Below are positions 1 through 21,751 of a stretch of DNA of 21,751 nt, piece by piece. Below the pieces are notes generated by a model. It saw only the letters and a program-made list of their open reading frames with translations. It was not told where the DNA came from and searched no databases. The stretch spans positions 1,856,001 through 1,877,751 of the forward strand of contig CM035317.1 of NCBI GenBank assembly GCA_000497125.2. The letters run 5' to 3'. Each line of letters starts with the position of its first letter. The stretch's first letter is position 1. The position numbers and the translations under genes were made by a program. Source of the DNA: Spironucleus salmonicida. Taxonomy: Eukaryota; Fornicata; Diplomonadida; Hexamitidae.

Positions 1-3000
1 ATTGATCTAATGGGCATTTCGTCACCAAATTTTATCAACCTTAGAGAGTCATTAATTGTAAAGAAGTCATTCTAGGAAATGATGTCAGATCTTACAAAAT
101 ATACTACGTTGGAAGTATTTAGAGAGAAACTCTACTAGTTTCTCCTTATGCTGTACAACCCGCGTGGGATCGAGACTATATTCTGGCGAAACATTTCTTT
201 TGTTATGAATTAAGGAGCTGATACTATCAGTTCATTTCATAAGTTAATCGAGGTTAAAGATAAACTAAACGAATATTTGGGCGAATAGTTTGGTACAGAA
301 GAACCGTACATAAAATTCTTCAAGAATATATATGCTATTACTATAAAATTCCCTATATTGAATGTTTATTAGGAAATACCCTTTATCTCAGTAAAAGTAA
401 CTCACCTCCTGGCTGCAGGAACTGATCTAGCCCTTATAAACTTCCTCAGATAAAATTAGTTTCTTTATACTTCCGAAAATAGTAGAGGTAAAACTCCGTA
501 TACACAGTCGAATATCCTTGGCACCTCCTAGATGCACCCTTCTTGTCTGACCTAAAGCTACTACAGGGATATGCGAATTACCACTCAAACAAACAAATCT
601 ATGATAGAATAGGTAAACGATAAGGTAAAAGATATGAGCATCAAGGACTTCTACCTCACGATGATGCCAGAGCTAGCTGCAGAGCTGCAGTTCCTATGCC
701 CCTTGGTGTGCCCATAGATAATTATTAATGAGAGTGCAACTAAGTACCTTTTCAATTCCACATACTAATTCTAGTTAATTATTAATTCAAAGTCTATTCT
801 TTTGAATTAGATTTCTTCTCATATGTAAATTCACAATTCATTGTTCATAATGAGGAATAAGGATTTAGTTGGAGCTAATTAGTTAATAAATTAAGAAAGC
901 AAAACGGAATTGTTAAAATTGTAGTCAATTGCAGAATTTAATTAACAATTACATCTCACTTCATCTTCATCGCTGAATCGAGATGTGGTGTTCGTATTAC
1001 ATTTCTTAGCAAGCTAGAGGTTTCTAGATACGCTTACCATGCTTAATGGAGAATCGGATTAAGCCTAACTTAGCCAGTTATGCACTACAGGACAAATCGA
1101 AGGCATGTTTAAATAGCAGCAGATATCAGAAATTTCATCCGCAATAATCCTTGTTATATCCTTGTGTAGATAGTACCCTACTCATATGAGTGGATTAACT
1201 AAGCTTTTTAAATAGATTATCAAGTATTCACAGTATCTGGAGATTTATGTGAATCCACTGTAGGTCTAATAGAATAATATCACCACGCTGAAAGAAATTT
1301 ATACAGAGTTTTAGTCGCTTTTTAAAGGTGCATTTTTCATGTTTTTACAAAAATCTTTCGATAAATACTGGAACGTCGATACGCCAGATATAGATATGTA
1401 CATTCGTGACGCTATTCAGAACGCCAGCGTTTGCTATGTAAAGCTAAAACAACTAGGTCTACTATAGAAGGATGAGAAACTTGCGATCGTAACTATTACT
1501 GATAAAACTTGCATTTCGAATCTATTTTTTGAGACATCTCCGCCGATGCCGGATTATCTAATTTCACTATTCGGGGTGGAGGATACAATAAGAGATTCAT
1601 TTTCTAACAAAAAAATGCTATCAATTAAGACCCATGACGTGGATGAAGAGAAAGTTTCAAGCATTAATCTGTTGATGGATTCAGGAAACCACACTGGGGA
1701 AGAAATGTTTAAAAAATAAAAAGATACCGGGATTGCAACATGTTTCCAGGTAACAAATAAATACCAGCAAAACTTCAAGTAGATTTGCCTGCACCACTAG
1801 GTGAGTCCATAATATGAAGCAAGAACGGAAAAAGTAGAAGCATACTAAGCACAGAAAGAGGTGAAGGTTTTAAGTGAAGTAAAAGCCAAAGTAGAATAGC
1901 TGAATAATGATGTAGCCCAAGCAAATGATAAAGTAGAATAGCTGAAGAACGAAGTAGACGAAGCTGAAGCAGAACTAACTACAGCTAAATTAAAAGTAAA
2001 GGAATTAAAGGTTGAAGTCAACCAAGCGGAAGCAGAACTAACTACAGCTAAATTAAAAGTAAAGGAATTAAAGGTTGAAGTCAACCAAGCGGAAGCAGAA
2101 TTAACTACAGCTAAATTAAAAGTAAAGGAATTAAAGGTTGAAGTCAACCAAGCGGAAGGAGAACTAGATACAGCCAAAACCAAAGTTAATTAAGCAGAAA
2201 CAGAACTAACTACAGCCAAAACCAAAGTTAATTAAGCAGAAACAGAACTAACTACAGCCAAAACCAAAGTTAATTAAGCAGAAACAGAACTAACTACAGC
2301 CAAAGCAAAAGTCAACCAAGCGGAAGCAGAATTAACTACAGCTAAATTAAAAGTAAAGGAATTAAAGGTTGAAGTCAACCAAGCGGAAGCAGAACTAACT
2401 ACAGCCAAAGCCAAAGCAAGCTAACCAAATATAGATGCTAAAAATATAGTTATTTAGTACGAAAAACGGTAAGAATACGCAATGTTAAATGCAGTGTAAG
2501 AGATTGAAAAAGCAGAAAAAGCATTACTATATGCATAATATGCATCAGTTTCTCCAAGAAAATAGTTTAATATTGAATAGGCAGAGATATAGTTATAATA
2601 AGCAAAAGATTGGTAATAAATACTAACAGAAAATACTAATAAAGATAATGATATTGAAAAAGCGGCCATAAAAGCGTAAGCTGAGTTTGAAATGTTATAA
2701 GCAAAGTATGATAATATTATTCATTCATAATAAATAAAGCATATGGCAGAAAAAGTAATAAATGTAAATTATTAAACTGAATTATTAACGTAGAATTAAA
2801 CAGAAGCTATGAACATGACTGCGACTGCGAAATAACGGGTTGAAGACGCTTAAACAGATTTAACATCCAAATAAATTATATCAAAAGAACGCGAAGATTC
2901 TGTAAATGCCGCCAGGAATAAACTGAACAGATTAATAGAAATATTGAAGAAAAAAAAGGAACGGTAATCTACGACACAGGAAGAAACTACATTATTAATA

Positions 3001-5010
3001 TAACAGGCTAGTAAAGAATTTGAATAGGTATAAGAAAACGCTAAGTAGCCAACAGCAGACACATTAGTTGCTACATAAAAACATTAAAGTGCAGTGGCAG
3101 ATTAGAGTTTTGTTGATAAAATGCTAACATGTATAAAAGGTGAGTTACTATTAGGAGAGAAATCATAAAAGGATGTACAAATCTAAATAGGGAAACAATC
3201 ACCTTAAGACTAAGTTGAAATTTAATAATATATGAATATATGGAACTAGGCGATAGGATTTTAAACACCAACTAACGAATCTGAAACAAATTACGAAGAC
3301 GTAGGACTATCGGTACTAGACTAGTAACTTGTGTTTGATATGCTCGAATTATGTTAGCTATTTGATTAATTATCTTAAATTTAGTTGGCAAAAGAATCGA
3401 GTTGCTAATAGTAAATTCTAACCGCATCAAAATATGCGGCACTATCCGTAATACGACTAACAGAATAATATAACTAAGGCAATAACAGAAAAGTATTATA
3501 ATAGCATGGCGGTGCAACTCCGAATTAGGTAAAAGTAATGTCAAAAGAGGAGAATAAGTAGTTACAAAACGTAATATCAGAATGGTGCACTAGCGTTCTA
3601 AAGAAAGGATAATAAGCATAAATCGAGATTAGTGATTTTATCACTTAGTGGAAAAATCTGTTCGGAGTGCCATAAATCATAGTTCATTTTGCGTTTAAAG
3701 TGTTATTAAGAAAGATAAAATAATTACTATAGTAATTAAAAGATTAACTACAATTGCAGTAAAATATTTAAGATAAGAACGCGAAATCATATTACGGAAC
3801 AAAAAATACAATTGTAGCTAATTAATTATAATAACCAGAAGAAAAATAATAGTACTAGAAAAACAAATAGTTATTCAATGATAAATTTTTCTGTCTTGAC
3901 ATTTTCTACTTTGTGAACTGTAAACGCAACAGTACTTCTTCTATGTTTTGCATAGATTATCTAAGAAATATAGAAAATTAGACTGTTAAGAAGATTATCT
4001 AATAAAAAGATTTAAACCATTAGAAGAAAAAGACAGAAGAGCCTGCTAAATAATAAACGGAGGCTTAACCGTAAGTAGATCTTGAAATAAATCAATCCTA
4101 TATATATTTCAAATTTAACTTACCTATAGAAGCAATTAAAGTTATATTCGTAGGAAAAACTATATAAGAAAAAAATAATTATTTTTATTTTAAAAAATAA
4201 AATGATTAAACTATAGAAAGCGTGTTACTTTAGGCAACGATTCCAATTAAATGTGGAAAATAGGTTACTAAAGTAGTTACTAAGTAATAGGGTAAAATAT
4301 TTATAAGTATCATTTAATTTAAATATGAGTCATATTTTCGTTAATTTGGTAATTTCTACTCACTAGATAACTCCATAATTAAAGGTATTAATGGTATTGA
4401 TACCATGTGGATTTCAAATAATTACTACTCAGGGACTATCAACGCTAGAAAGTTTACAAATGATTTTTTGTTCTAAATTCTAGAGAAAATAAATTAATGT
4501 TTACTTGATTCAGCTATAACCTATAAGATACTGGCCAATGAAATTACTATAAAATAAGTTATTGATAACAAAGATATTATTGGATTTTTGCTTAAAAATC
4601 ATCTTTTCCCAGTCTCTATCGATGGAACTACTTTAATCGTTGATTGTCTAACTGAGGACTGTCAAACATTCTTGCCAATTTTATCAAAGTACGAAATTCT
4701 ATGTAAGATTGCAATCCTAAAGTATAGAAACGCGCTTTCAGAGCGCTAAATCGGATTCCTGCAAAAGAAGGAAAACGAGGTGTTTGATGCAGCATGCAAG
4801 TTGATAGAATATAAAGATGGAATTTTGACATTTAAAGTAAAACATTTACGCGAAAGTTCTATTGTAGAAGGGTAGAAAGGATATTTTGAGGAGTATTGTT
4901 TTGAAGTTTTTTAAACATCCAAAGAGAACTTAATGGATACGTTAACACAGCTGAATGCGGTGATAGTGGCCATCGAGGAAGGCTACCTCCACGTGATAAT
5001 TCTTAAGTGA
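1..5010 (+). CDS. Giant coiled-coil protein A (5' partial), genetic code 6
   Basis: With TAA/TAG read as Gln, frame 1 is open from the first base to TGA at 5008-5010 (1,669 codons, more than 100 of them TAA or TAG). No start codon can be assigned; alignment with its paralogue at 16022-21256 suggests about 640 residues are missing upstream. Visible order: a helical/mixed region (window codons 1-600) with anchors LYNPRGIETIFW (from codon 51), AGTDLALIN (139-147) and MMPELAAELQFLC (221-233); a long, almost pure coiled coil rich in Glu/Lys/Ala/Gln (about 600-1040) built partly of heptad-phased repeats; a Gln-rich helical stretch (about 1060-1360); a mixed alpha/beta C-terminal domain ending HVIILK. 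No signal peptide or membrane segment is seen. I do not recognise the family. The architecture suggests a cytoskeletal or scaffold role, which is inference only. Tryptophan is always TGG, so TGA is a true stop here. Confidence 0.9.
1948..2412 (+). repeat. In-frame 63-bp and 42-bp tandem repeats coding coiled coil
   Basis: Near-identical 63-bp units (21 residues, three heptads) lie at 1948-2010, 2011-2073 and 2074-2136. A partial unit follows, then three 42-bp units (14 residues, two heptads) at 2182-2223, 2224-2265 and 2266-2307, then about one and a half further 63-bp-type units to 2412. Both unit lengths are multiples of seven residues, so expansion keeps the coiled-coil register. The 63-bp units encode VNQAEAELTTAKLKVKELKV-like sequence with Gln as CAA. 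The 42-bp units encode VNQAETELTTAKTK with the matching Gln as TAA. The first unit is the most diverged, as is usual at the edge of a tandem array. Confidence 0.93.
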
Positions 5011-5049
5011 AAGTGAGGGTCTATTTGTTATATTGCTTGAGGTCACTGC

Positions 5050-5697: not shown

Positions 5698-5808
5698 ATT
5701 TAAGCTTAACATATATTGGTGCCTGCAATTTCAATTAGAAGGAGTAGTGATTTAATACGATAGTGTATTTTGCTGATTAAAGTGGTTGCAAATGCACCAT
5801 ACTGACAT

Positions 5809-7793
5809 AGAGCTGATTTATGGTATATTAATGATGACACATTATATCTGCACTTTTCGCCATTAGCAGAGATCTTCGTTCCTGGGACTACTAAGACATC
5901 GAGTCCTTTTATATTTCTTGGTTGAGGCTGGCCATAACTTCTAGGTTTGGGTTAACAGTCAGTGTTATTATTATGTAACATGACTTTGACAGATCAAAAT
6001 AGCTGGATATCCTTCGTAATACTTAAAACACAGTCATGTAAACTATTTGCCAATAGGTAGCTGTAGGTTAATAGAGCAGACAAATTATTTCTAGCAACAG
6101 TAACTTGTTTCCGTATGCTAGTATTGCGATAGCGTAAGGAGTTAATATAATGACTAAGTATGCTACGTATTATTAGAAGATTATAATTCCTATAATTCTC
6201 GCCTCCTGGAATGTACCTCGATTCTGGAGGTAAAACCGATATACAAGACACACCATGTGACGTTCCTGACCATATTCATACTTAGTGAATCTGAAACTAT
6301 TATTTGGCGATCGGTCGATCAGTAATGATGTTATCAAAGGATGTAGGAAGTTTCACCCCGCCTAATTGCAGTTATGTTACTTACAACTTAAGTAAGAAAT
6401 AATGCTACAGGCATACTATGATGATACTCAGGTAAGTCAAATTACCATAATAGTGGAAGAGAATCTGGTTAGGAGGCCCCGTGACGCAGAAGCATATTAC
6501 AGCAATAAACTGGACAGCGCGAAATCCATAATTATTGTAGAAACGAATTCCAGCATACCATGCATAGTACACAACTTATGGGTTGAGCAGCGGGTAGCTG
6601 ATGACTGTTGTGAGATGGCCTTTCTTCCTCCGAAGATACACGTGGCCTTTTAATAAAATTACAGACTACATCCGCTGACAGTGGTTAGGAATGCTGAATA
6701 CCAACGCAGATAATGTAGTAGTGCAGTAGATGAAGATACACATGGCAAATGTAGATAGGCAGCAGGTAGTGTATATTGTAGTACTTCTGAGGAGTTATAT
6801 GTTATTTAAAACTTTTAAACGACTTGCATTCATATACTTTTCAAGTTTTTGAACACAAACCGCCACGTAGGAGTTGTAGCATGTTTACTATACCAATTTA
6901 TATTGTATGTTAGCGTAGAATAAGATCTAGCTCTTCAGTGTTGCGACTGCACAGCCTGCAAGCTTGCAAATTATCAGGATAGAGGATTGTGTAAAGAGGC
7001 GCATACACAGACTCTCGACTGGCATCTCAAAGCGAGGAAATATATAATTTCGCTGTCGTATGGTGGTAGCGCGTGTCTATTGGTTGTCAGCTTTCCTCGA
7101 GCAGTATCTAGCGGTACAAGATACTGTGCCAAGAAATATTAGATCTATAAAGAAGCATATTGATCATAAATATCTATGAATATTAGCTACTACGAAAGAG
7201 GAAATAAATAAAATTTTGTCATGCAAGGAGCAGCTGGAAGTATGGACTCCAAGGGCCATGCCAATAAAGTTGGTTAGAGCGGAACTGACTGATAATACAT
7301 TGTCGAGTACAAAGCTAATTGGGCGAATAATAAGAAATCATATCAACTATACAAGTACAATCACCTAGAATACCAAGCAACACGCAGTTTATCTTTGTAT
7401 ACAAGTACCAGTAAGTAGGCTGGACAGATAGAACTGTCAGCAGTAGCGAAGGAAGAAAAATATATAATCTCACATTTGGATCAGTTTTGTAGTTAGAGGT
7501 GTATTGATCAGGCTTGGCAAGGCTATCAGTACACTTAGAACCAGGTTTGCTTTTTCATAATCTTACGATAATTGCGAAATTCAAATTCAAATCGCGAATA
7601 ACAAGAATAATACTTACATATGTCATATTATCTCGATAATAGTATGCAGGTTTTGAAATTTTTATAATTAAATTTAGGTACTCTAATATAATTATATTCA
7701 GATAAATATATAGCATCCTATTACATGAAATAGCTATACTTGGAGAAATTGCTATTGAAGGAACATACTTATTTGCTATATAATAGTTATTGA
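5809..7793 (+). pseudogene. Possible decayed Ty1/copia-type polyprotein fragment
   Basis: Two successive + frames give protein-like sequence with few TGAs. Frame 1 (about 5806-5922 and on to 6150) has LWYINDD, then after one TGA GWPQLLGLG and a later FVILKTQSCKLFA. The spacing resembles the copia aspartic protease (W-x-x-D-S-G, then G-x-x-x-x-x-G-x-G, then the 'VLYVP..NL' strand), but the catalytic DSG reads NDD. Frame 3 (6270-7793) holds about 507 codons with TGA only at 7161 and 7290. It contains a YYDD tetrad (6414-6425) where reverse transcriptase has YxDD, and near 7311-7490 ANWANNKKS followed by SKQ and IELSAVAKEEKYI. That is the order of copia RNase H (DADWA, SK.Q, VALS..EAEYI). Integrase and LTRs were not found. 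Each match is weak alone, and the assignment is inference. Confidence 0.22.
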
Positions 7794-8617
7794 TAGAAAT
7801 ATTTAAAAAGATTATACCGAAACATCGTCACTAGTCTTTTTTAGCCTATTAAGTCATCGCATACATGAGGTAATAAACTATGCAAACTATAAAAATTATT
7901 GCTTATTTAACCTACGGGTAGATTATTACTGACGCAACAACGACTTCTACTACTCATAATAGTTATATCCACGAAATACGTTATCTGAAACGCTATATAT
8001 CAATAATTTAACCTAAATTTTTCAAAAGCTTATCAATAACTGCTCAACTATTTATGCACCCATTTGTGCGTTTAATAATGTAAAATAATAACCATTGGTG
8101 CTTTCAAAAATATTGAGCACAATTTCATTTTCCAAGCAATATTCTTGAAACAGTTTGAGTTCTAGATACAAATTATAATGGATCAAAAACTTGTAATACA
8201 TAGCAGTGATGTATTTTTTGGACAGTTTCATACTTAATAATATCACGATTTTGAGTATATATCATTTAAATATTTGTAGATAGAGATGGATAGAGTGGTA
8301 TTATTTGCATATCATTTTATAGGCTTTATCGTAAAATACTGTATTTAACGCAACTGGATTGGGTTTCTTCTAATATGAAATTTATGTTAGGATAAATTAA
8401 TTGATTTTGCTATATATGAACATTACTAACAATTTGTATGGTGTGGGAATGTTCGAGCATAGTAACATATTTATATAACAAAAGAGCACTAGTCTAGAAA
8501 CAGTACGAATGCCTTTTCAAGAATGTTAAGGCTTATTAGAATGTAAATACTAATGTAATTAGTACAGATGCATATTGGTGACGACTACTAATGTATTTAT
8601 AATAGTTATTGGTAAAG
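7794..8617. other. AT-rich stretch with only a small minus-strand ORF
   Basis: The stretch is strongly AT-rich with frequent TGA in all frames of both strands. The only item noted is the 69-codon minus-strand ORF at 8022-8231, listed separately. I see no tRNA-like fold, no long direct repeat and no recognisable regulatory motif. Confidence 0.5.
8022..8231 (-). CDS. Candidate small protein, 69 residues
   Basis: A minus-strand ORF runs from ATG (complement 8229-8231) to TGA (complement 8022-8024). One internal TAA is read as Gln, after the motif LLNAQMGA. An in-frame TGA lies a few codons upstream, which limits the start. The product is helical and hydrophobic/aromatic (KYITAMYYKFLIHYNLYLEL), with an acidic middle and no recognised family. 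The length is within chance expectation and the base composition matches the surrounding AT-rich DNA. Confidence 0.2.
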
Positions 8618-8788
8618 ATGAGTTTTGACAAGATTGCAGACTAAGCACAGTATATGGTGCAACATTATGAGTCATACATTATTTATAATGAAATTTTCTT
8701 AAGAGTAATTAGATAGTCTGGAATATCCTAAATTCAGCAGCGTATTAATTTTCTGCTGGTTTACCGCATATTACTGTAAGCGGATTGA
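8618..8788 (+). CDS. Candidate small helical protein, 56 residues
   Basis: This is a code-6 ORF from ATG 8618 to TGA 8786-8788 whose product starts MSFDKIADQAQYMVQHYESY. It is rich in Gln (TAA, TAG, CAG and CAA all used) and predicted to be helical throughout. It overlaps, on the opposite strand, the 3' end of the decayed gene at 8672-10719, so at most one of the two readings is real over 8672-8788. No family is recognised. Confidence 0.25.
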
Positions 8789-10719
8789 ATATTTAAGCAT
8801 GAACGAAAAACATAGCACTGAGTCACTTTTCTAAGACACTGCGCAAGCTACAACCTTTGAGCCGAAAATACCCTTAAGTACGGCATCGCACATCATAATT
8901 GGGGCCTTTACCACGCTAACCTTAGTTTCTTAGTTGCTTCTATGCGTTCATTTTTAGGGATAGGCTTGGAAAGCTATACAGTAAGTCTAACAGCTTCGCC
9001 ATTCTCAACTGCAGTAGATGTACAAAATGTTCTAAACGGTTCCACAATTTCTGGTTTAGCGTAGTTTATGCCGCCTTTGCATTAATTGATTGTGATCTCT
9101 TCAATCTCATTGGCATCCCGATTTTTACAAATATGGTATACCCATTGGGACATAGAACACAAGTGATCTATCTTTGAGATTTATCAATCGCCACTTCTTC
9201 AAACTTTTCAATGGCGACAGGTACATTACTAACTATTACTTTATACGAACGTGCAGCATCTCTGCTGGGACTGCGTGAGCAACCTCCGTCTCTCCCGCAA
9301 CTTGCATCTCCCAATAACCTTGCTAACACGCATGCTTATTGACTATGAATCGAGCTCTTACCAAGGAATTGCGGCGCAGAGAACAATATGTTTTCATCAG
9401 CTAGTACAACCGGTGTACCGGGGGCTGCAGATGTTTCCAAAAGAAGAGGGCCCTCTTCGGCAGCATCTTCCACCAAATTATGAACCTAAAGCAATTTCAG
9501 GCTGAAAGAAGCGCCCGCTAACAAGCTTGAACGAACCAGCCTCTATAGGCCTGGCTTTTGGATTAACTTTTCCACCCAAAGACACGGCAACTTTATCCTG
9601 AGGAATAAGGCCAACCGAGAGTGACAAACAGCCGCATTCGAGCCTTGTAGTTTTCGTGAGATCTGGCTGCAAAGTTACAGGATCCATCGGAGCAAGGTAC
9701 ACCGCGGCAACCCGAGTTTCCCCAACTAGATTTAAAGCCGTGGTTACCAGATGGAGCGGAATTCCGAAATCTGTTCAGCACTATTCGATATTTCGCTAAA
9801 GGCCAGAGCAGCGCGGTAAGAGCCCGTAGACGCCCAAAGCGCGCGCCCTCCAAAGTGCACCTGTGGACCATAGTCAGACCGATAGCGCCAGAACCCAGGA
9901 TTCCACGTTCTTCCCAGGCGGCTACCCGTCCATGTTGATCATTTGCTGCGCCGAGTACCGGAATGCTCGCTCCCCCTCACGGCAGCCGCTCCCGAAATCA
10001 ACACCTTTGCCGAGAAGTGCCGCACACAGAGGCCCCTCGTGACGGTCGAAATTGTGTACCCGCTGCCAGTTTCTGTGCACTGAAACACGAACGAGTGCAT
10101 AAGAATGCTCGAATTCGACTGAAGGCAGTCCGCCTCGAGCAGCTCCGCGTACTCTGGCCCGTGAGCTCCTGCTTGCACTTGCAGAACCCGAAGCCGCCGT
10201 GAATGCACTGCGCCAGAATTCACTACCAACGTGTGCTATTTTCTAGCACCAGACCCGCTTTTCCGAGTATCGTGGCCGTACGCTGCAGTAGCACCAGTCG
10301 AGATATTTCAGCACCGTTCGTTCCAGAGCGCGGAAGGCCCAGGTGAACATCAGCTTCCAATTGGTATCTTGCGTCTCCTTGCTTTCATCGAGTGGCACGT
10401 CATCTGTGCAGGCGTGTAACGCACGTTTCTGACGCGGGCTGCTCGCTCTGCGCGAGGTGCCGGAGGATTTCGCCCCAGCTCCCGTCCACCTCCTTCTGGA
10501 TCTCGAGCCCCAGCTGCTGCTTCTTGGCCCTGCATACCGAGTTTTTGGGCGAAACGCGGTGCGCGAAGTCCAGCACGAGCTGGTGCGAGGGCGCGATCAG
10601 CGAAGTTAGGAGTCTGTGAGCGTGATCTCAATATCTGTTGGCAACAACTGTGGGGGCAGCGCGAATGCTACGAAAATCGTAGTACTGGATTCCGAGATCT
10701 CGTATGACAGGGAAAGCAT
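8672..10719 (-). pseudogene. Decayed or frame-disrupted gene in a GC-rich island, unknown family
   Basis: The minus strand gives a series of protein-like segments in shifting frames. They start at ATG (complement 10717-10719, MLSLSYEISESSTTIFVAF) and end at a TGA (complement 8672-8674). Successive segments include HQLVLDFAHRVSPKN, NWKLMFTWAFRALERTVLK, VAAVYLAPMDPVTLQPDL (the longest clean part, about 9480-9740) and EIEEITINQCKGGINYAKPE (around 9080). Frame switches occur with no room for introns, for example at about 10605 and 8930, so simple splicing cannot rescue it. Composition (Val/Ala/Gly/Glu-rich, RNY-like codons) favours this strand over the Cys/Arg/Ser-rich opposite frames. G+C is about 55% at 9250-10640, against about a third in its surroundings. 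A beta-rich protein is likely and no family is recognised. In GC-rich DNA, TGA-free runs of 60-90 codons arise by chance, so the gene call is moderate. Confidence 0.4.
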
Positions 10720-10822
10720 TTTTCAAATGTGGCAGGGATAATATATAAGAATTAATGTATAATATTGTGTAAATGTTTATTCGTAAAACGTGTTTTGCTA
10801 TATTTTGTATATATCTTGAAAA
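10720..10822. promoter_or_regulatory. Divergent AT-rich spacer, putative bidirectional promoter
   Basis: These 103 bp separate the start of the decayed minus-strand gene (ATG at 10719) from the start of the C_GCAxxG-type gene (ATG at 10823). The composition drops sharply from GC-rich to very AT-rich at about 10735, with TATA-like runs (atatataagaattaatgtat). In compact protist genomes such short AT-rich divergent spacers commonly carry both promoters. No specific factor site is identified. Confidence 0.35.
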
Positions 10823-11074
10823 ATGAACTGTGCTCAGAAAGTCTCCGAAAAGGTAAATCCTTCATTAACGAATATCGTAAAATATGCAGGCGGTGGGAAT
10901 GCACCGTCGCATGTCTGTGGAGCCTTGTATGCAGTTTAGCTGGCAAATCCCAGTGTATAACCGTTATTGGAGGAATAATTCTCAAAAAAAATTGGAGGTG
11001 TTGAGTGCAGTGAGCTTTATGGGAAAATATCATGCGATGAATTAGTTGAGTATGCAGTCAGTTTAGTAAAGTGA
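10823..11074 (+). CDS. C_GCAxxG_C_C-type putative redox protein
   Basis: The ORF runs from ATG 10823 to TGA 11072-11074, 83 residues. An in-frame TGA at 10817-10819 fixes the upstream limit. Three Gln (39, 46, 52) are TAG, TAA and TAA, so it is open only in code 6. The product begins MNCAQKV and contains GGGN...HVCGALYA (residues 23-37), GGVECSEL (58-65) and KISCDELVEYA (68-78). Four cysteines at 3, 32, 62 and 71 match the order and context of the C_GCAxxG_C_C family: NCA near the start, a CGAxxG-like motif after a Gly-rich loop, then two C-terminal Cys. The last Gly of CGAxxG is Ala here. Family members are usually about 140-150 residues, mostly from anaerobic bacteria and archaea, and are thought redox-active without a defined reaction. 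This one is short, so an upstream exon or truncation is possible. Likely soluble; lateral origin is plausible. Confidence 0.72.
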
Positions 11075-11262
11075 TGATTCATTCGTTCTCTTCTAATGTC
11101 ATTAGAATTCTTTTCTTTGACTTATTGTTTAACTTAATAGATTCCGAGGTGACGAACTCAATTTTCAGTAACAGAAAATTTCGCCAGAATGATTTTCTAA
11201 ACCCTGGCTACTCCTATTTTTCCTGAACTTGATCTTTTTTTTTTTGTTTGGATCCTTTTGGA

Positions 11263-13651
11263 TCAGAAATATAGTTCTCTTGAAGCTGGTTAAATATTTT
11301 AAATAGTTTTCACTTCATCTTTAGTTAATAAATATTAGATTTGTTTATAGTATGAGCCAAATTGATATGTTTCAATCTTATTAATTATTACAAACTTACT
11401 ATAGTCTTGCTTAGTGCTAAGTACATCAGGAGTATAATAATAGTTCTATTTTTCAATTTCTTAAGGTAGTACAACTATTACTTCTCTATCTTTATTAAGC
11501 AATCTTATTTATTCAACTTTGCTACATACGTTATTACTTTCAAATTTCTATTTAGTACTAGCTTTCTTATTTATCTTTATGAGTTCATTATTTATTACTA
11601 ATTCGATGAAAGCTAGGTCATCTCTTTTTCTTCAATCAGCAGTTTTGCGTTTATGAACTTCACCATTTCTTTGGTTAAAAAATGAAGGTACTATCTTTTA
11701 AATATAGATAAAAATTAACAGATATTCACTTAACTTGCTTATCAAAGTTTATAAAGATCATTGGGTCTGGTTAAATAATTATATATAAAAAACTATATTT
11801 GAATTAGCCTCTCTTCGAATAGTCGTTTCCAAAATAATCAATTGATCTATATACAATTCAATAAACTATTTCTATTCGAATTCTTAACTTGTTATCCTTC
11901 CAATATCCTTAAAGATATCTTTTATATGTTCTTCCTTGAGACCGTTCATTAACAAGAAAGTTGTAAACAACTATCTAAAAGGTCCATACAGTATCTTAAT
12001 AGAATGTAAACATGAAATGGTTGCCCAAATCCAAGATATCTTCTTTAAAAATTAGTTTATAGAAATCAGATTCAGTTGTAGTTTGAAATACTGAACTTCC
12101 ACTCAAGTCATCTAATAATAAAACTATTTTTATATTCGTATCTAATATTTATTATAACGCAATCCAATTTATTCATACAGAATTACATATATAATCAACA
12201 ACATCACCTAAGCAATCTTTCTATAAAACTAAACATTCTTAATAATATTGCTTTACCCATTCGAATTGTGAAAGTATGTTTTTAAAAACTTGAAAGAATA
12301 GTTTTTGATCTCCATTTTTAATTTCTTTATCTTTTAAAGTAGTTCGTATCTAATCTTATGTTATCAATGATAGATTTATAATGGTTTTCATTTTCTATAA
12401 TTCTTGACATAACATTAATAACTTTTATTTTGAAGTCTTCCATTCGAATCAACAAATGGTATATTAATATATTGTCTTTGGTTTTTGATTTTTAATAAGT
12501 TTAATCACAATCGATAGTTGGACTTAAGAAGAATGTATGAGTTATAGCTCAATTGTTTAAATAAGGGTCATCTAAATTATACTTTGATAGTTTACTTTAA
12601 TCTAATATGCTTAATTTATTTTATTCATTGAATACGTTTTGACTGTTCCTGCTGAACCCATAAGTCCAAAATAACCATAACCATTATTTTAATTTAGACC
12701 TCCTGGGGTCCGGACGGTTGCATCCGAGTATTTTTTTGTTTTTTATATCAAAAATTGAATTTCGTCTGATTGTATATTGTACTCCATATATTTAATTGAA
12801 GCAAAAATAATAATAAATTAAATGAATGAATGTCACTTTAGCAAAAACCTACAAAATATATAAACTGATTCTTGTTAAACTTCTGCTTGTGATGCAACTC
12901 TTTTACTTTCAGTTTAATTTAAAATATTAAATGATAATTAATTAGTTCTATTTGTCATATCTTTGCAAACAAATATAGTTCGATTCAAAGGCTGCAGCAT
13001 TAAACTTTTAGATATTAAGATACTAATGGTTTCATCACATTAATTTGATTTTATATAAACTGTATTTAAGTGTCTAAAGAACTTAGCTGAATTAAGTTCA
13101 CTTGTAAGATATCTTTTAATAATTACTGTTGTTTTTGTAATCTCCAAATCTATCTTTGTTTAATAGCTGAAACATGCATTCAAATTTATATTTTTACTGT
13201 TGGATCAATAGTATACTTATCGAATTGTAATTTAAACTAATCATAAAACATCTTATATTCAACTTCAGGAAGGATGTGCTATTAATTATTGATAGGATCA
13301 TACGAATCTTAATAAACCAATTTAAAATATTTATAGTTTATTATTTGCAATGGTACTTTATCATTTCTAAAATCTGTTAAAATTTTATAATAAGTAATAT
13401 TTATATAGTATGTCAATATTGAACTTTATAAATTACATTACTTGTAAAAGATGAACATTTCAGATAGATTATCATTACCAGGGTTTAGTTACGATTAACC
13501 ATGGCCCTCTTAGGGATCAGTAGCCCAATAGGAGGTTACTGTCCTTCGTTTTGCCTCCGCTAGCAATAATCCCTTTTAATTGATCCTAATTAATAACCTC
13601 CTGTTAATTATGTTTTGAAAAAAATAGGGGCCTGTTGCCAAAAGCTGACAT
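11263..13651 (-). pseudogene. Decayed P-loop (kinesin-like?) gene, unknown N-terminal part
   Basis: The minus strand gives a chain of code-6 segments from ATG (complement 13649-13651, MSAFGNRPLFFSKHNQQEV) to TGA (complement 11263-11265), about 800 codons. It is broken by frameshifts (near 13520, 13185, 13135, 12840) and in-frame TGAs (for example near 12150, 11850 and 11632). Around 12635-12682 it reads GYGYFGLMGSAGTVKTYSM. This resembles the kinesin P-loop block (FAYGQTGSGKTYTM), with the last Gly before Lys changed to Val. About 60 residues upstream, VYIFCRFLL resembles the kinesin first strand (IRVFCRVRP). Kinesin switch motifs NxxSSRSH and DLAGSE are not clearly present; LLDDLSGSS and VNERSQGRT are only faint echoes. 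About 260 unrecognised residues precede the motor-like part. Several shifts lie in A/T homopolymers, so indel sequencing error is an alternative, though both 5-kb giants are error-free. Confidence 0.42.
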
Positions 13652-13701
13652 AGCACGATCTAGTATCTACTTTCTCTGGCTTGGAACATCCATGATAGTG
13701 T

Positions 13702-14427
13702 ATGATATACTATTATTTTAGTAGATAGGAGTTAGCAGAGCGAATCAGAGTAACAATAATAAAAGCAAGTGAAATTATTTGTGCAAGATGTATCAGTAGG
13801 TGCTCAGGATGTGAGATTCGCCAAGAGATGTAAAGAGATCTTACTAAATATATTATTCGTGTGGCTTTACAGGACTCTATGTATTTGAGAGGAGTGATCC
13901 TGCTATGTTGGGCTGCTAGAGCGCTTATTTTACTACTTGTGTATTTTATAACTATACAGATATATAATATATTAGCAAGGCGCGCAGTAGGTAATTAGCT
14001 GGCATACAGAAACTAAATACAAAATAGATTTCAAAGCTTTTTCCTTAATAAGTATATTTCGATGCAGTTGGTAATAATTACAATACTAGTTTAGGTAAAT
14101 ATCGTTTACTCAGTATTAGACATGATCTGCATGATGTATTTAACTTAACTAATCCTGCACAGTATCAAATTTATCCCTAGCACTATGCATTAAATTGTTG
14201 CTAATGCATTCCATAGGATATAAGGTTCTGGTTTTGAGTCACAAATATGCTATGAATTATAAGAATATTAAGTATTTAGAACTAATTAGTTTTAACCTGA
14301 GTTTTTGATCTAAAATAATGCTATATATTTGCAATATATATTAAATACTAATATTGTATACTCAGTAAACAAAAACCTACACAAGTAAATATAAATATAA
14401 CTAAATCTGCTCATATGTATAATTTGA
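13702..14427 (+). CDS. Weak candidate ORF with hydrophobic segments (241 codons)
   Basis: This ORF is open in code 6 from ATG 13702 to TGA 14425-14427. The predicted product has a Cys cluster (CARCISRCSGC, near residue 28) followed by hydrophobic helices (VILLCWAARALILLLVYFI, residues ~66-85, and one around 118-140), then a Gln/Asn-rich tail that looks like translated AT-rich noise. No family is recognised. Chance can produce a TGA-free run of this length here. Confidence 0.15.
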
Positions 14428-14520
14428 GTTTCCCTATATAATAACACTAGCTATGCTTATTTTTATAAAATATCATATTATATAATTTTAATTATCAGAG
14501 CAGTAATTTTAAAGCCTTAA

Positions 14521-14940
14521 ATGTCACAGCCTCTCATCGATAGCGGAAGCGCTTTAAAAATCGAGATTTCATATTTTATTATACATTAAATTTAATTAAA
14601 ATGCTATTCCTTCAAAATGCGTTCAATAAGTTACCCAGACAATTCACAAGCGCCATTTGGCTAATGCTATCCACTACATATCGAATGTACCTATCATACC
14701 TCCATTTATCACTATTTCATCATTTCTGATACCGCCAAGAGTAAATCCAAAGCACCCTGCAAGCCGATCATCAGAAGTTTAAAAGCAGCATCGTCAAGAT
14801 GTCCCCAAACGGTACGGTTTTTAATTCTGCAAAATCGCTCATTGAACCGATTTAAAGTTGATCGATTCGTGAAATTTCAGCGGAAATTTGGTCCATAACT
14901 GCATGGAATCTCGAGAGCGCGAGAGCGAAGTTTACACTGA
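14521..14940 (+). CDS. Candidate ORF with the same start context as giant gene B
   Basis: This ORF runs from ATG 14521 to TGA 14938-14940 (139 codons), beginning MSQPLIDSGSALKIEISYFI. The 12 bases ccttaaatgtca (14515-14526) around the start are identical to those around the start of giant gene B (16016-16027). Both N-termini read MS followed by a Leu/Ile/Glu-containing strand (ALKIEI here, GLSIEF in B), so this could be the stump of a third family copy. Past the first ~25 residues I see no similarity to B. It overlaps a minus-strand ORF (14771-15559), and both cannot be trusted. Confidence 0.22.
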
Positions 14941-15559
14941 AGGGAATTTTTTAGGGACGAAGTTGCATAAGCTGCACGAAATCTAGAGATTTGGGGGCGA
15001 AGAGGGCCTGCGAAAATGTGGTTATTAGGGGTGAGGAGATAGCGCTAGCTCGGTAGTCAGGACCCAGCGAGGTAGCAATATCATAATTTATCGGGAGCAG
15101 GGTTGAACTTATGCTAGCTTAGGCCTTCCACATTTTGGTGCTACGAGGCTGAGTTGCGGCTGTTGGCATAGTGAATAATGGCTTACTCTTCATATTTGGC
15201 ATAGGTGGCTGCTAGTGAAGTGGGTACCACTAGTACGGTACCCCAAGTATTTCCATAGACAGCACCACGGTAGGCGTGAGTGGTACTGGGATAGTGCTTG
15301 ACGACAATACAATACTATAGTATATATAGTAATAGCTTAAATGGAGTTTAATAGTATATATGCATTGGGAGTGGTGCCTATAAGGATATTTAGTATATAC
15401 TATTGTATCTATATAATACATTACTATACTTACTAATATATATTCACTTATGAGCCCAGGTACAAAGTAGCCTAAGAAGGCTATTCTTACCTGTAGAGTA
15501 CAAGCACAGGCTATGCCGAATACTGTATACATTCTATCTTTAATACCCGCATGATGCAT
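14771..15559 (-). CDS. Weak candidate ORF, 262 codons
   Basis: This minus-strand ORF runs from ATG (complement 15557-15559) to TGA (complement 14771-14773), with an in-frame TGA three codons before the start. The N-terminal 110 residues are Tyr/Ile-rich and look like translated AT-rich DNA. The C-terminal half, in more GC-balanced DNA (14750-15240), looks more protein-like (SISSTLLPINYDIATSLGP; AVMDQISAEISRIDQL). The + strand of that part gives equally protein-like segments, so the strand is undecided. No family is recognised. Confidence 0.22.
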
Positions 15560-16021
15560 AATCTATCAAACATGATACTCTGCAGTCTCACTCGGTATGC
15601 TGCTTAAGACCGAAGCATAGGGATGGATGAATGTTAGATGGTAACGACGACTCGCTAGGATGAGTTTTACTGAAGAGAAGCGACGTCAGCAGAAGATGAT
15701 ACTTATTGCATCTAGTAACGATAGGGATGCGTGGGATCATGCATAGAGTATGAGCTAATGTATTTTTAGGAAACTCCTATATTTACTAATAATGCGTGAT
15801 AGTTAAGTAGTATTGTATATTGTTAATTCCTTACTAGCGCTCAAATACAGATAGAAAAACTACATTAGTTTATTTGATACTTTTTGTTTCGTAAAACACT
15901 TAACATTCATTAATCATACTATTTATTAATATATAATAAAAATACATAAAGTTTTCAAAGGATAGCAAAGTATTTTATATAATAATACCCTATTTTACAT
16001 CTTACCTCTTTAACTCCTTAA
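15560..16021 (+). promoter_or_regulatory. Upstream region of giant gene B
   Basis: The first ~170 bp are GC-balanced and include a short, gene-like start (ATG 15660, MSFTEEKRRQQKMILIASSN) whose frame soon runs into AT-rich sequence. The last ~250 bp are very AT-rich and end acatcttacctctttaact followed by the shared start context ccttaa before ATG 16022. This is the expected place for the promoter and 5' UTR of gene B. No defined box is identified. Confidence 0.3.
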
Positions 16022-19000
16022 ATGTCATCAGGTTTATCTATTGAGTTTAAAGCTCTTCCATATTCAGTTGACTAGGGTTATAATGTAATAATTAATAAAA
16101 AGATTAAAAAGCTTAAATTTACTATAAGAGATAACGAAATTAGTTAATCTATCTAGCTTGATAGTGAATAGAAATATATTCTGTGCGCCAATGTTAGTAC
16201 TAAAGAACAACTTTGTGCTGTATAAATAGTGCTACTATACAAAAAGTTAAAAAAAATTATACCAAACTGTACTATATAGCTAGTATAAAAACATAAATTT
16301 TTTGCGTATGAGGATCTTTACTTCTGGAATAACATTGGAATTGTAGCTGCCCAAATGGGACTGAAGACCAAATCAATTAAGATATATAAAGACCATGAAG
16401 GGGAAAATTTAACACCAGATTTAGATCTTTATCTAGCAGAGATCAATTAGTACGATTTACAATATATTTCATTTTATGATAGCTTCGACACATTGACGAT
16501 TCTAAAACCAGAAGGTATAAACAAGTGTGCTTTTCATGAAAATTTAATACTGACCTAGTTAGCTGCAATCTAATACCAGCATACAGAAAAGTACCCGTTA
16601 ATATTGCCATTAGTTTTTGGATTTTCTGCATATCAGTTATATACTGACAGATTTGTTCAAATTTTTTAGAAAGCTGAAGTTGCATCAGCATAGGATCTTA
16701 AGCATTCTATTTTAAGAAAAATATTCGAATTGTCCAATATTGTTTATAACGAACAAGTATTACCAGATAAATTTAAAGTTATGAATCTGTTCCAACTACC
16801 TATCCACTTTATCGGGACTGGGATCAGTTTGTTCATGTTCCAGCAGCTCTGCCACGTGTCCTACCTCTTCAAGGCGGAGTATTTTGCATTATTCTCGTTG
16901 GTTAAAAATGATCTTAACGACACTCTTACGAATGCTGTCATAAGCCAGAGCTCCAGGTCTGGGAAAAGTGTAGCATTGTACACGCAGTATTTTTTCCACC
17001 TCCTGATGGGGAATGTTCCAATATTGCTTAATATGTAGGGTTCTACATTATAGCCTCTATACAAATACAAGACACACTCATTTCATCAGTAGCTAGTTGC
17101 TCAGTATAAAAATATATTCAAGTTGCAGGATTTAACGAACCTCAAGGAAACAGTGCTAGCTGATGTTTGTAAATTCCATACCTTTCAGTTGGAAAGCTTA
17201 GACTAAATGTCTTTTATTTACTAGACTATGATTATATTTATTAACAAAATTCAGGGCAACTTGTAATTAGTTCAAAAGCTAAAATACGATAATTCTATAT
17301 AGTTGCAATTCGATTAACTAAAACTAGCTTCTTTTTTCATTATAGATACTGCAAATATTATAAATGATATAGACTAAGTATTACTTGAATAACAAAGGCG
17401 AAATAATATATAATTGAAACACCCTATCATTTTGGTAGATGAGTGCTTGCAGTCATAGAAGGAGAAGTTTTCGAAATGCGTTAAGTTGTGTCAGTCGTTG
17501 TTCAAATATTACGAAGAGAAGCTGATAAAGTTAGGTAAAGATTAGTATATAGAGATACAAAGCACATTGGATAATGCAAAATTTTGGTAGATAGGTAGAT
17601 TAGGAAATATCAGAAATACCAAATATCATCTAGCTATCAATGTTATTTAACAACTTCTGAACACTGACTTACTTTTAGCTGTAAAAAGGAAACTGGATCG
17701 AATTAGTTGGAAGCTAAAATATGAATACTAGGATATTAGCTTGTACCAAACTGTTGAAAACATTTTAGCGAGTGTTTAATCACAAAATACAGATTAGAGA
17801 TTCAATACTATACACGCCAACTAAGAAATTATAGTGGAATATTTTAAATCTCTTAATAGTTTACTAGGAAAATCAGAATACATTCTCATAGCGATGGAGT
17901 ACCTTCACCTCGAGATTGATGATTACGACCTTCTCGACGAGCTAGTCGTTCACTCACCGCAGATACTGAATACTGGGAACAGAACAGATTTTAGAAAGAT
18001 ATTATTTTCGGGAATGTCGTCTTACAGGAATCGAGGACAGTACTACGAAGATTTTGAAGTGGATTTCTTCAAGTTTATTCTTTAATTATTTAACCCCAGA
18101 GGGGCCGAAACAGCATTTTGGAAAGCATTTTCAATTATTGCATTTAAGAAAATTGAACATAGCTAAGTGGATGACAAGTTATCTAAGGATAAAAAAGAAG
18201 AAAAAACTACTAGAGAGAATGCTTTCCCTATAAGTTAGCAGGGCATGCTAAAATAATATTGGTCTTCTTCAGTCCAGTCTTTAATATGTAAATATTTTAT
18301 GAATACAAATACAGATGATTTACATTAAGATCTATAACAGATGATTCTAAAACTGCCAAAAATGTCGGAATAATACAGTACTAAATACGAAATGCCTAAT
18401 TTTGACTATTTTACTGTTATAATGGCTGGAACAGATCTTGCCATCATCAATTGCCTTACTCTCAATTAATTTTGCTACAATACCATGTTAAGTAGAGGTT
18501 GGTTGCACTACATTAATACTTAAATATTAGGACATGTTCAGCCTCACGCGTCATTGCTGTCTAGCTTGCAGTACGAGCAGCGTCGGATGGTAGTGGATGA
18601 CAAAAGTTATAAGGATTCTATTAATAATATAGAATAATCAGTCAAGACATTTGCTAAAGACACCCCAATTTTGGTATCGCTACTGTACTCGATGATGACG
18701 GAGAAGTCGGTTGAGATGCAGTTCATGTGCTCATCGGTATGCCCGTCTATATGGTTTCAGTATAACTAAAAAATATTAAATTTCAATGCAACCAGCAGGC
18801 ATGTAGTCAGTTTTTGTGTAGAAGGTAAAAAGTTAATTCCAGAGCAAACTATGTATCAGTTTGATAGCCTCACCTAAACCTATAACAATATTATCATACA
18901 CAAAGGTGCTAATAAAAATACTAAATTTAAGCTCACAAAAGGATATGCTCATTTTGAATTACTACAAGATAATCAAAATTACAATATCAGCTGCATTGCA

Positions 19001-21256
19001 TCGTCGACTCTGAACTACGAGGTGGTCTCCGTTTTGAACTATTAGCTCATGCTTACATTTATAGAGTAGTATTAAACCTCAGAGATAAGTGTAGCATATG
19101 CTTAAGATACGCTATAACAAATGTCTAAATTATTCTAGAGAAGCGTGTTGCTTGAATTTATGCAGGTCATCCTGTTCATGGCGAAGCTTACCTGGCAGTC
19201 GGCAACCCTAAGTACGAACATTTCCCTGATTATGGGCTAAGTGGACACTGGGCATGTCTACGTCTAATACTTGCATGGTGGAAGTATTGATTCCGAGAAA
19301 AGCGAGAGTGTTTTTAGTTTGCTGAGAAGAACGTCCGTGCCGCATAAGTTTATGTTCCTAAACCCCACCTTTGACTACGCGTTCTAAAATTTTAATAAAA
19401 AATCATCTATTTCTATATATGAATAGGTACTGAAAGATTCGGTAGCAGCTGCGAAAGAAACTTTTCAGTTGCTGCGTTAGAGGCTACCAGTCTAGCCAGA
19501 AAGTACCACCAAAAAGGAAGAATCCTCCGCCAAAGAAGCCATTGTGGAGTAGGATGGTGGAGCTCAGGATGATGTTGGCAGCACATCCCCACCATAAGAG
19601 TGTTAACTACCTAAAACTCAGGATGAAGCGTAGGAAAAATTAAAAGACAAATAAACAGGCCCTATGCTAATTATCGTGATCCCTTTCGACAAGAAGATGT
19701 GCTTTACGGATAGTTTGGACAAAACAAAGCACAAAATATTTGACTTCATCGTCACGTTCCACGGGTACCCTGACCTCAGTTTGGAGACAAAAGATGGCTG
19801 CCAAGTGCTTCCGATAGAGTGTGGTCACCATATCCCCGAAGTGTTGGTCAAAAAGGTTAAAGCGTTCAAGCTTAATAATGTATTGCAGATTGGGCTTGAT
19901 AGGAAAGGAGCACACCTGATATTAGACGTTAACTATAAATCTTAAAATTGGTAATATAATTTGTAAAAAGCTGAAGATTTAGTAAAGCTGCAGTAATAAA
20001 CGGAAAAAGACAAAAATGTCAAACATGCTGAAATTTTACAATCAGAAAAATAAAAGATTGTAAAACACTCATTTTATAAAATAAGTTGCCGCTAAGATTG
20101 CTATACCGAAAGTTTTATTGAATTTTTAAAAATCAATATTCCATTCAATGTGTTTTAAGATTATGGATCTAATTTTATTTAAATAAAACAAGAGTTAGAC
20201 TAGACTGCTAAAGATAAATTAGATACAATGGAATAATTTTAGAAATGCATTAATTTTGATATTTAATTCTAACCATAAGGCATAACTTAATTTGAATTGG
20301 GTAGTACTACAATGAAAGCATAAACGAATGATAAATAGATTCGGCTGTCAGTTTTATTCATATAAGATAAATAAAGAATTATCTATCAATTAAGCCAGTT
20401 ATATCATATGCTAGGCTTTAACATATGCAATGACGAAATTATTAGTGTATTTTTCACTGTCAGTGTTGATATATACAAATTTTTAGAGAAATTGTAGCTT
20501 CGTCTCGTATTTGCATAAGGTGAAAATGATTATCAGTATTTATATGTAGAAAACAATCCTGACACGATACAATAGAAAGAAGAAGTATTGAGTGCATAAA
20601 TTTTGATGGATGCAAACCTAGCAGCTGTGTAAGCCTTAAATAACTAATAGAATTTTTCCGCAGATGCACGTAATCTTGTCATGTATACTGCCATAATTTT
20701 GTCATTCAAAGCAGATGTTAATATTAAGTGTTAGTATTAAGCCAAAAATTTTTAATTTACGATAACTTATAATGATTTACTTGAACAACTGTCCACTTTT
20801 GGTAGTATAATTTATTAATATAAAAATGGTACCTTATTCTTAAAAAATAGCAATATCCATTTGATTTCTATTTTCCGACTTAACTCACCTAGTTTTTAGA
20901 GTTTTTGCGAGGATGATTGGAAATATTTTAGCTTATTAACACAATTTTGCAATTAGTAAGAGAATACGAGGTAGTAGTTATTTTAATAAAAGTTCTAGAC
21001 ATACTTTGATTAAATTTCGAAGCTGCTTCAGAAAGTTACCGTCGATAAAGTTGTTTACTTTGGATTTTAATACGAATGTGAATAGATTACTTATGGCAAG
21101 CGTGAACAATTTAGTTAACGTTAATTTTTAAGCCCAAACAAGTTAGACAGTAAATAGTTGCTGAAGTTATTTGTGGAATCGAAAGTAATTATACTTAGTA
21201 CCAAATAAAAGATAACAAGAAGATAAAGTTTTGGTAAAAATTATTTTTTTGAGTGA
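16022..21256 (+). CDS. Giant protein B, complete paralogue of A (1,744 residues)
   Basis: The ORF runs from ATG 16022 to TGA 21254-21256 in code 6, with many TAA/TAG Gln codons and Trp always TGG. The first ~640 residues, lost upstream of A, contain hydrophobic helices and a Walker-A-like stretch, SSRSGKSV (310-317), that lacks the first Gly of GxxxxGK[ST]. Shared anchors with A follow in the same order: LFNPRGAETAFW (689-700), AGTDLAIIN (802-810), ILGHVQPHASLLSS (near 843), MMTEKSVEMQFMC (891-903) and HKFMFLNPTFDYAF (near 1110). A charged low-complexity linker occupies about 1161-1211. The C-terminal alpha/beta domain (about 1215-1744) includes IIYQYKNGTLFLK, which matches KLIEYKDGILTFK in A. 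Where A has ~430 residues of coiled coil, B has only a short Lys/Gln-rich helix (about 1310-1345). There is no signal peptide. I do not recognise the family and the function is unknown. Blocks of GC-rich codons alternate with AT-rich blocks. Confidence 0.92.
16730..17038 (+). other. GC-richer codon block in gene B around the Walker-A-like motif
   Basis: This 309-base block of gene B contains no TAA or TAG codon; its Gln codons are CAA or CAG. C/G-ending codons are frequent in 16790-16990. It encodes LPIHFIGTGISLFMF, the cluster CHVSYLFKAEYF and the SSRSGKSV segment. Similar blocks lie at 17834-18080 and 19664-19945. Flanking blocks use TAA/TAG for Gln every few codons. Confidence 0.8.
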
Positions 21257-21367: not shown

Positions 21368-21374
21368 TATTATA

Positions 21375-21751
21375 ATATAGTAATATTAGTAATATAGTAA
21401 AAATATAGTAATATAGTAATATAGTAATATAGTAATATAGTAATATAGTAATATAGTAATATAAAAAGTAATATAGTAATATAGTAATATAGTAATATAG
21501 TAATATAGTAATATAGTAATATAGTAATATAGTAATATAGTAATATAGTAATATAGTAATATAGTAATATAGTAATATAGTAATATAGTAATATAGTAAT
21601 ATAGTAATATAGTAATATAGTAATATAGTAATATAGTAATATAGTAATATAGTAATATAGTAATATAGTAATATAGTAATATAGTAATATAGTAATATAG
21701 TAATATAGTAATATAGTAATATAGTAATATAGTAATATAGTAATATAGTAA
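21375..21751 (+). repeat. Microsatellite (ATAGTAAT)n, runs to the window end
   Basis: An 8-bp unit, atagtaat, is repeated about 45 times. The start is irregular (21375-21410) and one interruption (ataaaaagtaat) lies near 21461-21472; the rest is perfect. It continues past the window, so its full length is unknown. The unit is unlike the G-rich telomere repeats known in protists with this code. Confidence 0.95.

What the first reader, a model, noticed from the sequence alone, without database searches (positions are those of the whole stretch)
16022..21256. Undescribed family of giant paralogues (A and B) sharing ordered anchor motifs
A (1-5010) and B share [LF][YF]NPRG-E-T-FW, AGTDLA-IN, ILG, MM-E---E-QF-C and a C-terminal YK-G-L-FK motif. 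The order is the same, with similar spacings (85 against 110 residues between the first two, 82 against 89 between the next two). Between the anchors they are strongly diverged. No known domain is evident. Two intact giants within 22 kb suggest an expanded, selected family.
Basis: partly seen in the sequence, partly recalled or inferred. Interest (0 to 1): 0.75.

Follow-up and report, generated by a model that had tools for sequence, protein, structure and literature searches.

The report
Giant chromosome-end ATPase-like protein family
A single-celled parasite of salmon carries dozens of copies of a very large, often reshuffled protein whose best-conserved parts look like an ATP-binding engine; many copies sit near chromosome ends and are read outward, an arrangement known from a trypanosome family whose job is also still unknown.

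Summary
The window is the end of a Spironucleus salmonicida contig. A is cut by the window: it is the last 1669 residues of a 2368-aa protein. I count 43 family places in the genome by hand (29 B-type, 14 A-type; broken and possibly duplicated contigs included); every named database relative found is from this species. Of 20 B-type places on the nine large contigs, 18 lie within 50 kb of a contig end, all 18 reading toward it. Pfam, PDB sequence searches and two low-confidence AlphaFold models name no family, so "P-loop NTPase" rests on motifs and their invariance. Best reading: a lineage-specific giant NTPase family with mosaic, fast-changing C-termini, organised like trypanosome RHS proteins; kinship to RHS could not be tested. 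A "Dynein heavy chain" label on one relative is unsupported.

The parts
16022..21256 (+). ORF B, 1744 aa in code 6, stop TGA included
   Evidence: dN/dS below 1 against sister copies
16022..16756 (+). B residues 1-245, N-terminal alpha/beta part
   Evidence: best-scored part of the AlphaFold model (blocks of pLDDT about 70-79 up to residue 90); A-type/B-type profile probability 96%
16859..16888 (+). SYLFKAEYFA (B 280-289), most conserved A-B window
   Evidence: score 0.89
16946..16969 (+). P-loop-like QSSRSGKS (B 309-316)
   Evidence: Q309, S310, S311, S313, G314, K315 invariant in 26 of 26; window 308-317 ranks second
17426..17446 (+). Walker-B-like IILVDEC (B 469-475)
   Evidence: L471, D473, E474, C475 invariant in 26 of 26; predicted strand 468-473; window 471-480 ranks third
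17471..18163 (+). helical insert, B about 484-714
   Evidence: mostly helix, many blocks of pLDDT 60-87, in the second model
18092..18121 (+). NPRGAETAFW anchor (B 691-700); R693 a conceivable arginine finger (inference)
   Evidence: P692, R693, E696, T697, F699, W700 invariant in 26 of 26; window ranks fourth
18416..18436 (+). VIMAGTD (B 799-805), sensor-1-like strand (inference)
   Evidence: G803 and D805 invariant, T804 nearly so; predicted strand 798-802
18524..18553 (+). ILGHVQPHAS anchor (B 835-844)
   Evidence: I835, G837, Q840, H842, S844 invariant
19616..21253 (+). B residues 1199-1744, fast-changing C-terminal part
   Evidence: identity to other B-types 23-94%; median dN/dS 0.515 in 48 pairs
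1..5010 (+). ORF A, last 1669 residues of a 2368-aa protein
1..1242 (+). part of A that aligns with B 638-1085
1816..2412 (+). A coiled coil
   Evidence: heptad phases 0 and 4 are 90% and 96% hydrophobic
1961..2346 (+). tandem repeats of 63 bp (3 heptads) and 42 bp (2 heptads) inside the coiled coil
15971..16019 (+). TATA-rich then C-rich stretch before B's ATG, judged by eye
   Evidence: against the promoter layout in PMC3916229 section 10
21373..21751 (.). TAATATAG satellite at the contig end, 117 bases after B

Best explanation
A and B belong to one giant, lineage-specific gene family of S. salmonicida. Members are intracellular-looking proteins (no hydrophobic 19-residue window above 1.6 in B or in full-length A) with an N-terminal alpha/beta part, a P-loop NTPase core (P-loop, helical insert, Walker B, long second helical insert, sensor-like strand) and a fast-changing C-terminal part; two A-types add a coiled coil built of repeats. 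Shown: homology, family size, invariant motifs, clustering near contig ends and outward reading of B-types, identity that jumps along the protein. Inferred: the core binds and hydrolyses ATP or GTP and drives a conformational switch that the variable C-terminal part delivers to a target; recombination or gene conversion between chromosome ends reshuffles the C-termini. The arrangement most resembles trypanosome RHS proteins, so a nuclear, chromatin- or transcription-associated NTPase role is my first guess, and a role in conflict with host, competitors or foreign elements my second. Separate odds: P-loop NTPase 0.85; works like RHS proteins 0.4; common descent with RHS/crinkler NTPases 0.2.
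For: Motifs: six P-loop positions and four Walker-B positions invariant in 26 of 26 aligned members although A-types are only 20-23% identical to B overall; windows ranked second and third in A-B conservation; 28 of 29 held members have the pair 60-300 residues apart (the miss, P0028, has only the Walker B and is probably cut short) against 0.15% and 0.1% of 2000 shuffles of B and P0022, with a pattern loosened after seeing the family. Predicted helix 314-329 after the P-loop and strands 332-336, 468-473, 798-802, 832-836. Placement: 18 of 20 B-type places on large contigs within 50 kb of an end, 18 of 18 outward. Mosaic: within one assembly, C7:1584446-1590109 is 55% identical to B over 1-375, 65% over 364-1190, 85% over 1158-1743, and C2:9446-14032 is 72% then 42%. 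Selection: median dN/dS 0.36-0.375 over N-terminal part and core. RHS parallels: ATP/GTP motif in the conserved part, variable C-terminus, mosaics, copies near telomeres, reading toward the telomere (passages).
Against: Walker A has Q instead of its first G. No Pfam, NCBIfam, PADLOC or PDB sequence match to any NTPase. AlphaFold models have mean pLDDT 48 and 53, the P-loop area is below 60, and no clear strand is predicted just before the P-loop; no fold match above noise. A-types are less end-bound: 8 of 14 within 50 kb, 6 of these outward. No expression, location or activity data were available. Some jumps in identity involve proteins of the 2014 draft (such as P0003) and could be assembly chimaeras.
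Confidence: 0.55

Rival explanations
1. Member by descent of the crinkler-RHS class: the core is that class's NTPase and the C-terminal parts are its effector or nuclease modules. This is a narrower form of the best explanation.
For: Same kind of layout as RHS; crinkler-type proteins commonly join a P-loop NTPase to a variable nuclease part and occur across eukaryotes (PMC5289972 passages). From memory only, the order P-loop, Walker B, SSPN-like, PR-containing motif also recalls RHS.
Against: No RHSP or Crinkler Pfam match in any scan; no relative outside S. salmonicida listed; no nuclease domain found. No RHS sequence was at hand for a direct comparison; the PF07999 genome search rang in no control either and says nothing.
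Confidence: 0.2
2. Not an NTPase: a scaffold or cytoskeletal protein whose GK[ST] and DE motifs are coincidental or relics.
For: No confident P-loop fold, first glycine of Walker A missing, coiled coil in some A-types, 'Dynein heavy chain' label on P0024.
Against: GK and DE invariant where the rest has diverged, in the order and with most of the secondary structure expected; no dynein domain at E<=5 in P0024 or P0026.
Confidence: 0.12
3. Passenger or selfish sequence: copies multiply because chromosome-end segments, or an element carrying the gene, multiply, with little benefit to the cell.
For: Flanks are duplicated along with the genes: 8 upstream flanks 88-94% identical to within 10 bases of B's ATG, and up to 5.3 kb downstream of A at 87-99%; some copies are broken, with in-frame TGA.
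Against: dN/dS well below 1 between paralogues; open frames of 1300-1900 aa in many copies; no transposase, reverse transcriptase or terminal repeats seen in the window (ten longest spacer ORFs only).
Confidence: 0.13

Closest known systems
Trypanosome RHS (retrotransposon hot spot) proteins, Pfam PF07999
   Same: ATP/GTP-binding motif in a conserved N-terminal part, highly variable C-terminus, mosaic genes made by recombination, copies next to telomeres, subtelomeric genes read toward the telomere, function unknown (PMC7563717 and PMC3418195, passages).
   Different: No sequence similarity shown; far larger proteins (1744 and 2368 aa); B-types more end-bound (18 of 20 here, 19-30% reported for T. 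cruzi RHS); no retroelement insertion hot spot shown; nuclear location untested.
Crinkler-RHS-type (CR) effectors
   Same: P-loop NTPase with variable C-terminal parts, in multigene families (PMC5289972, passages).
   Different: No ubiquitin-like header (Crinkler) or nuclease domain found by Pfam; secretion unknown. Zhang et al. 2016 itself was not held.
Dynein heavy chain (UniProt label of V6LLP0, P0024)
   Same: Giant, coiled coil, P-loop-like motif.
S. salmonicida CRMP1/CRMP2 surface proteins
   Same: Expanded family in the same genome; ends and CRMP regions are gene-poor and variable (PMC9509377 section 22).
   Different: CRMPs are cysteine-rich membrane proteins; B has 1.6% cysteine and no hydrophobic window above 1.6.

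Membership tests
P-loop NTPase | Walker A GxxxxGK[ST] | tested here: met
   QSS[RK]SGK[ST] in 26 of 26; met except that the first G is Q
P-loop NTPase | Walker B, four hydrophobic residues then D(E) | tested here: met
   IILVDE and variants, DE invariant in 26 of 26
P-loop NTPase | P-loop sheet fold | tested here: inconclusive
   models too poor; strand before the P-loop not predicted; fold searches at noise level
P-loop NTPase | nucleotide hydrolysis | not testable with these tools
   needs purified protein
RHS proteins | sequence similarity to RHSP (PF07999) | tested here: inconclusive
   no hmmscan match, but no RHS sequence for a profile-profile test; rang in no control
RHS proteins | conserved NTP-motif part and variable C-terminus | tested here: met
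RHS proteins | retroelement insertion hot spot near the NTP motif | not tested
   copies were not checked for insertions
RHS proteins | nuclear location | not testable with these tools
   needs tagged protein
Crinkler / CR effectors | Crinkler header or nuclease domain | tested here: inconclusive
   no Pfam match in the proteins scanned, single-sequence scans only
Dynein heavy chain | dynein motor and linker Pfam domains | tested here: not met
   P0024 and P0026 at E<=5, A and B at E<=1
RNF213-like ATPase | AAA and RING Pfam domains | tested here: not met
   no such Pfam match
CRMP / VSP surface proteins | cysteine-rich with a transmembrane segment | tested here: not met
   1.6% and 1.3% cysteine, no 19-residue window above 1.6 in P0001 and P0026

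The most novel reading that the evidence does not exclude
A previously unrecognised class of giant P-loop NTPases, arisen or diverged beyond recognition in one diplomonad lineage, that independently took up the RHS way of life: an invariant ATP-driven core carrying ever-changing C-terminal parts, stored near chromosome ends, read outward and reshuffled between ends, as a diversity-generating system for an intracellular rather than a surface function.
Probability: 0.35. Interest if true: 0.75.

Novelty: new variant of a known kind. Interest (0 to 1): 0.52.

Why it matters
Diversity near parasite chromosome ends is usually discussed in terms of surface antigens. A large family of intracellular-looking, P-loop-bearing giants with the same placement and reshuffling, in a lineage far from trypanosomes, would be a second case of the RHS puzzle and would make that puzzle testable by comparison. 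It would also give a working function class to several dozen 'hypothetical' genes of a fish pathogen and correct a misleading dynein label.

Tried and rejected
Known-domain searches without a usable result: Pfam (coiled-coil and chance matches under the curated cut-offs), NCBIfam, PADLOC, PDB sequences, Rfam, tRNA.

Relatives elsewhere: three searches of the large protein set, with B, with the 9-row core alignment A3 and with the 26-row alignment A1, listed 26, 6 and 26 proteins. All with a source name are S. salmonicida; P0001 and P0026 carry no name and lie on the window's own contig. Searches scored only the candidates sharing most words (7996 and 7992), so distant relatives can be missed.

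Dynein, RNF213 and surface-protein readings were dropped for want of domains, cysteines and hydrophobic segments. A caspase-like reading of the C-terminal TFHGY...PIEC block was dropped because the A-types I looked at lack that histidine (and P0026).

Limits of my numbers: dN/dS is simple Nei-Gojobori on frames chosen for being open, pairs limited to dS 0.05-1.5, pairs not independent; one of 86, one of 55 and one of 48 pairs exceed 1 in the N-terminal, 1011-1190 and C-terminal segments. Placement uses contig ends of the held assembly, not proven telomeres. Left out of the 20: five B-type places on small contigs (C14, C21, C22, C33, C36) and four B-type places seen later (C1:1915339, C7:1597531, C15, C16). 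Small contigs may repeat places on large ones: C33 and C7:1584446 give nearly the same scores. A 75-residue A-type piece on C31 is not in the 43. One search prints a binomial P value for placement; I do not use it, since duplicated ends are not independent. No formal recombination test was run.
Full report
Where it is. The window is G000:C2:1856001-1877751 and ends at the contig's right end. G000 has 14.47 Mb in 37 contigs, and the named relatives of B are all Spironucleus salmonicida, whose published assembly has 14.7 Mb and nine chromosomes and whose code has a single stop (PMC9509377 and PMC3916229, passages). The identification rests on these. The last 379 bases are an 8-bp satellite, TAATATAG, not the published telomeric repeat (TAGG)n. 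B ends 117 bases before it; on C1 the sister gene's last match ends about 120 bases before the same satellite.

The observation. Both frames, all five anchors and their order are as described, and A and B are homologous beyond chance (99 bits; at most 33.5 in 200 shuffles). Window A is the C-terminal 1669 residues of the 2368-aa P0026. With 6 A-type and 14-20 B-type sequences as profiles, the N-terminal part matches at 96% probability, the core at 100%, the stretch after the core at 1.5% and the extreme C-terminus at 37%.

Family size and placement. Searches of the genome with B, A and two divergent members give, merged by hand, 29 B-type and 14 A-type places, broken copies included. The tool scores only its best candidates, so true numbers may be higher; small contigs may repeat places, so they may also be lower. 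On the nine large contigs I tested the 20 B-type places: 18 within 50 kb of a contig end and 18 of 18 read toward it; the other two are internal on C5. Of 14 A-type places, 8 are within 50 kb and 6 of those read outward; the two that read inward are short matches at 31-32% identity. Eight upstream flanks like B's recur at 88-94% identity, reaching to within 10 bases of the start codon. Just before B's ATG there is a TATA-rich and then a C-rich stretch, by eye like the promoter layout of this species (PMC3916229 section 10).

What the proteins look like. The four best-conserved ten-residue windows between A-types and B-types are SYLFKAEYFA, SQSSRSGKSV, LVDECLQSQK and NPRGAETAFW. The second and third are P-loop-like and Walker-B-like and are invariant at their key positions in 26 of 26 aligned members. 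That is close to what an ASCE-type P-loop core should show, but no clear strand precedes the P-loop, the second model keeps only two of the four strands, and no fold search rose above noise. The assignment therefore rests on motifs and their invariance.

Evolution. Median dN/dS is 0.36 for residues 1-245 (86 pairs, 1 above 1), 0.375 for the core (133 pairs, none above 1), 0.566 for 1011-1190 (55 pairs, 1 above 1) and 0.515 for 1199-1744 (48 pairs, 1 above 1). Identity jumps along the protein: B is 98-100% identical to P0003 up to residue 1190 and 38% after 1199, but 94% identical to P0005 after 1199 and 56-58% before 860. P0003 comes from UniRef/EukProt, probably the 2014 draft, so that pair could be an assembly chimaera; jumps within the new assembly, such as 55%, 65% and 85% along C7:1584446-1590109, do not have that weakness. 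A's coiled coil is built of 63-bp and 42-bp units, whole heptads, and motif counts differ between P0026 and P0024.

What it is likely to do. Shown: a selected, end-clustered, mosaic family with an NTP-binding signature. Inferred: an NTP-driven switch or motor whose variable part changes what it acts on. The nearest way of life is that of trypanosome RHS proteins: ATP/GTP motif in a conserved part, variable C-terminus, mosaics, telomere-adjacent copies read outward, nuclear location, unknown function (passages of PMC7563717 and PMC3418195). I do not file it as RHS: no RHS sequence was available to compare, Pfam scans found none, and insertion hot spot and location are untested.

Already known? 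The proteins are in public databases as hypothetical or uncharacterised, one as 'Dynein heavy chain'. I found no account of the family in a listing of 25 of 115 papers on the species and 'genome', passages of three genome papers and one expression paper, with two sections read whole, a search by six gene identifiers (0 papers), one by 'subtelomer' (9 papers, listing; passages of one) and one by 'P-loop NTPase' (5 papers, listing). Supplementary files could not be read.

Noticed in passing
P0024 (UniProt V6LLP0), an A-type relative of the window's ORF A: Carries the public label 'Dynein heavy chain', but Pfam at E<=5 shows only tropomyosin-like, ATG16 and DUF6799 matches below the cut-offs.
   Followed up: yes
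window 5011-16021: Spacer between A and B: the ten longest ORFs have no convincing Pfam domain; it is repeat DNA shared with other contig ends. The stretch after A is 87% identical beside two mirrored internal A-type places on C6, where the protein itself is only 42-50% identical: the flank looks better kept than the gene.
   Followed up: partly
window 9001-11000: G+C of 48-51% in a genome-typical surrounding of 25-38%; origin unknown.
   Followed up: no
window 21203-21253: B's last residues differ from sister copies P0005 and P0006 before a shared YFF ending; looks like a short out-of-frame stretch, real or an assembly slip.
   Followed up: no
G000, TAATATAG satellite: The four-unit pattern matches 1962 times forward and twice in reverse (overlapping counts, listing capped): a strongly one-sided orientation.
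   Followed up: no
window 1961-2346: Minisatellite of 63- and 42-bp units inside A's coding frame, each a whole number of heptads.
   Followed up: partly
L006 542-1759: ORF upstream of the withheld stretch that looks, from recall only, like an FAD-dependent oxidoreductase.
   Followed up: no
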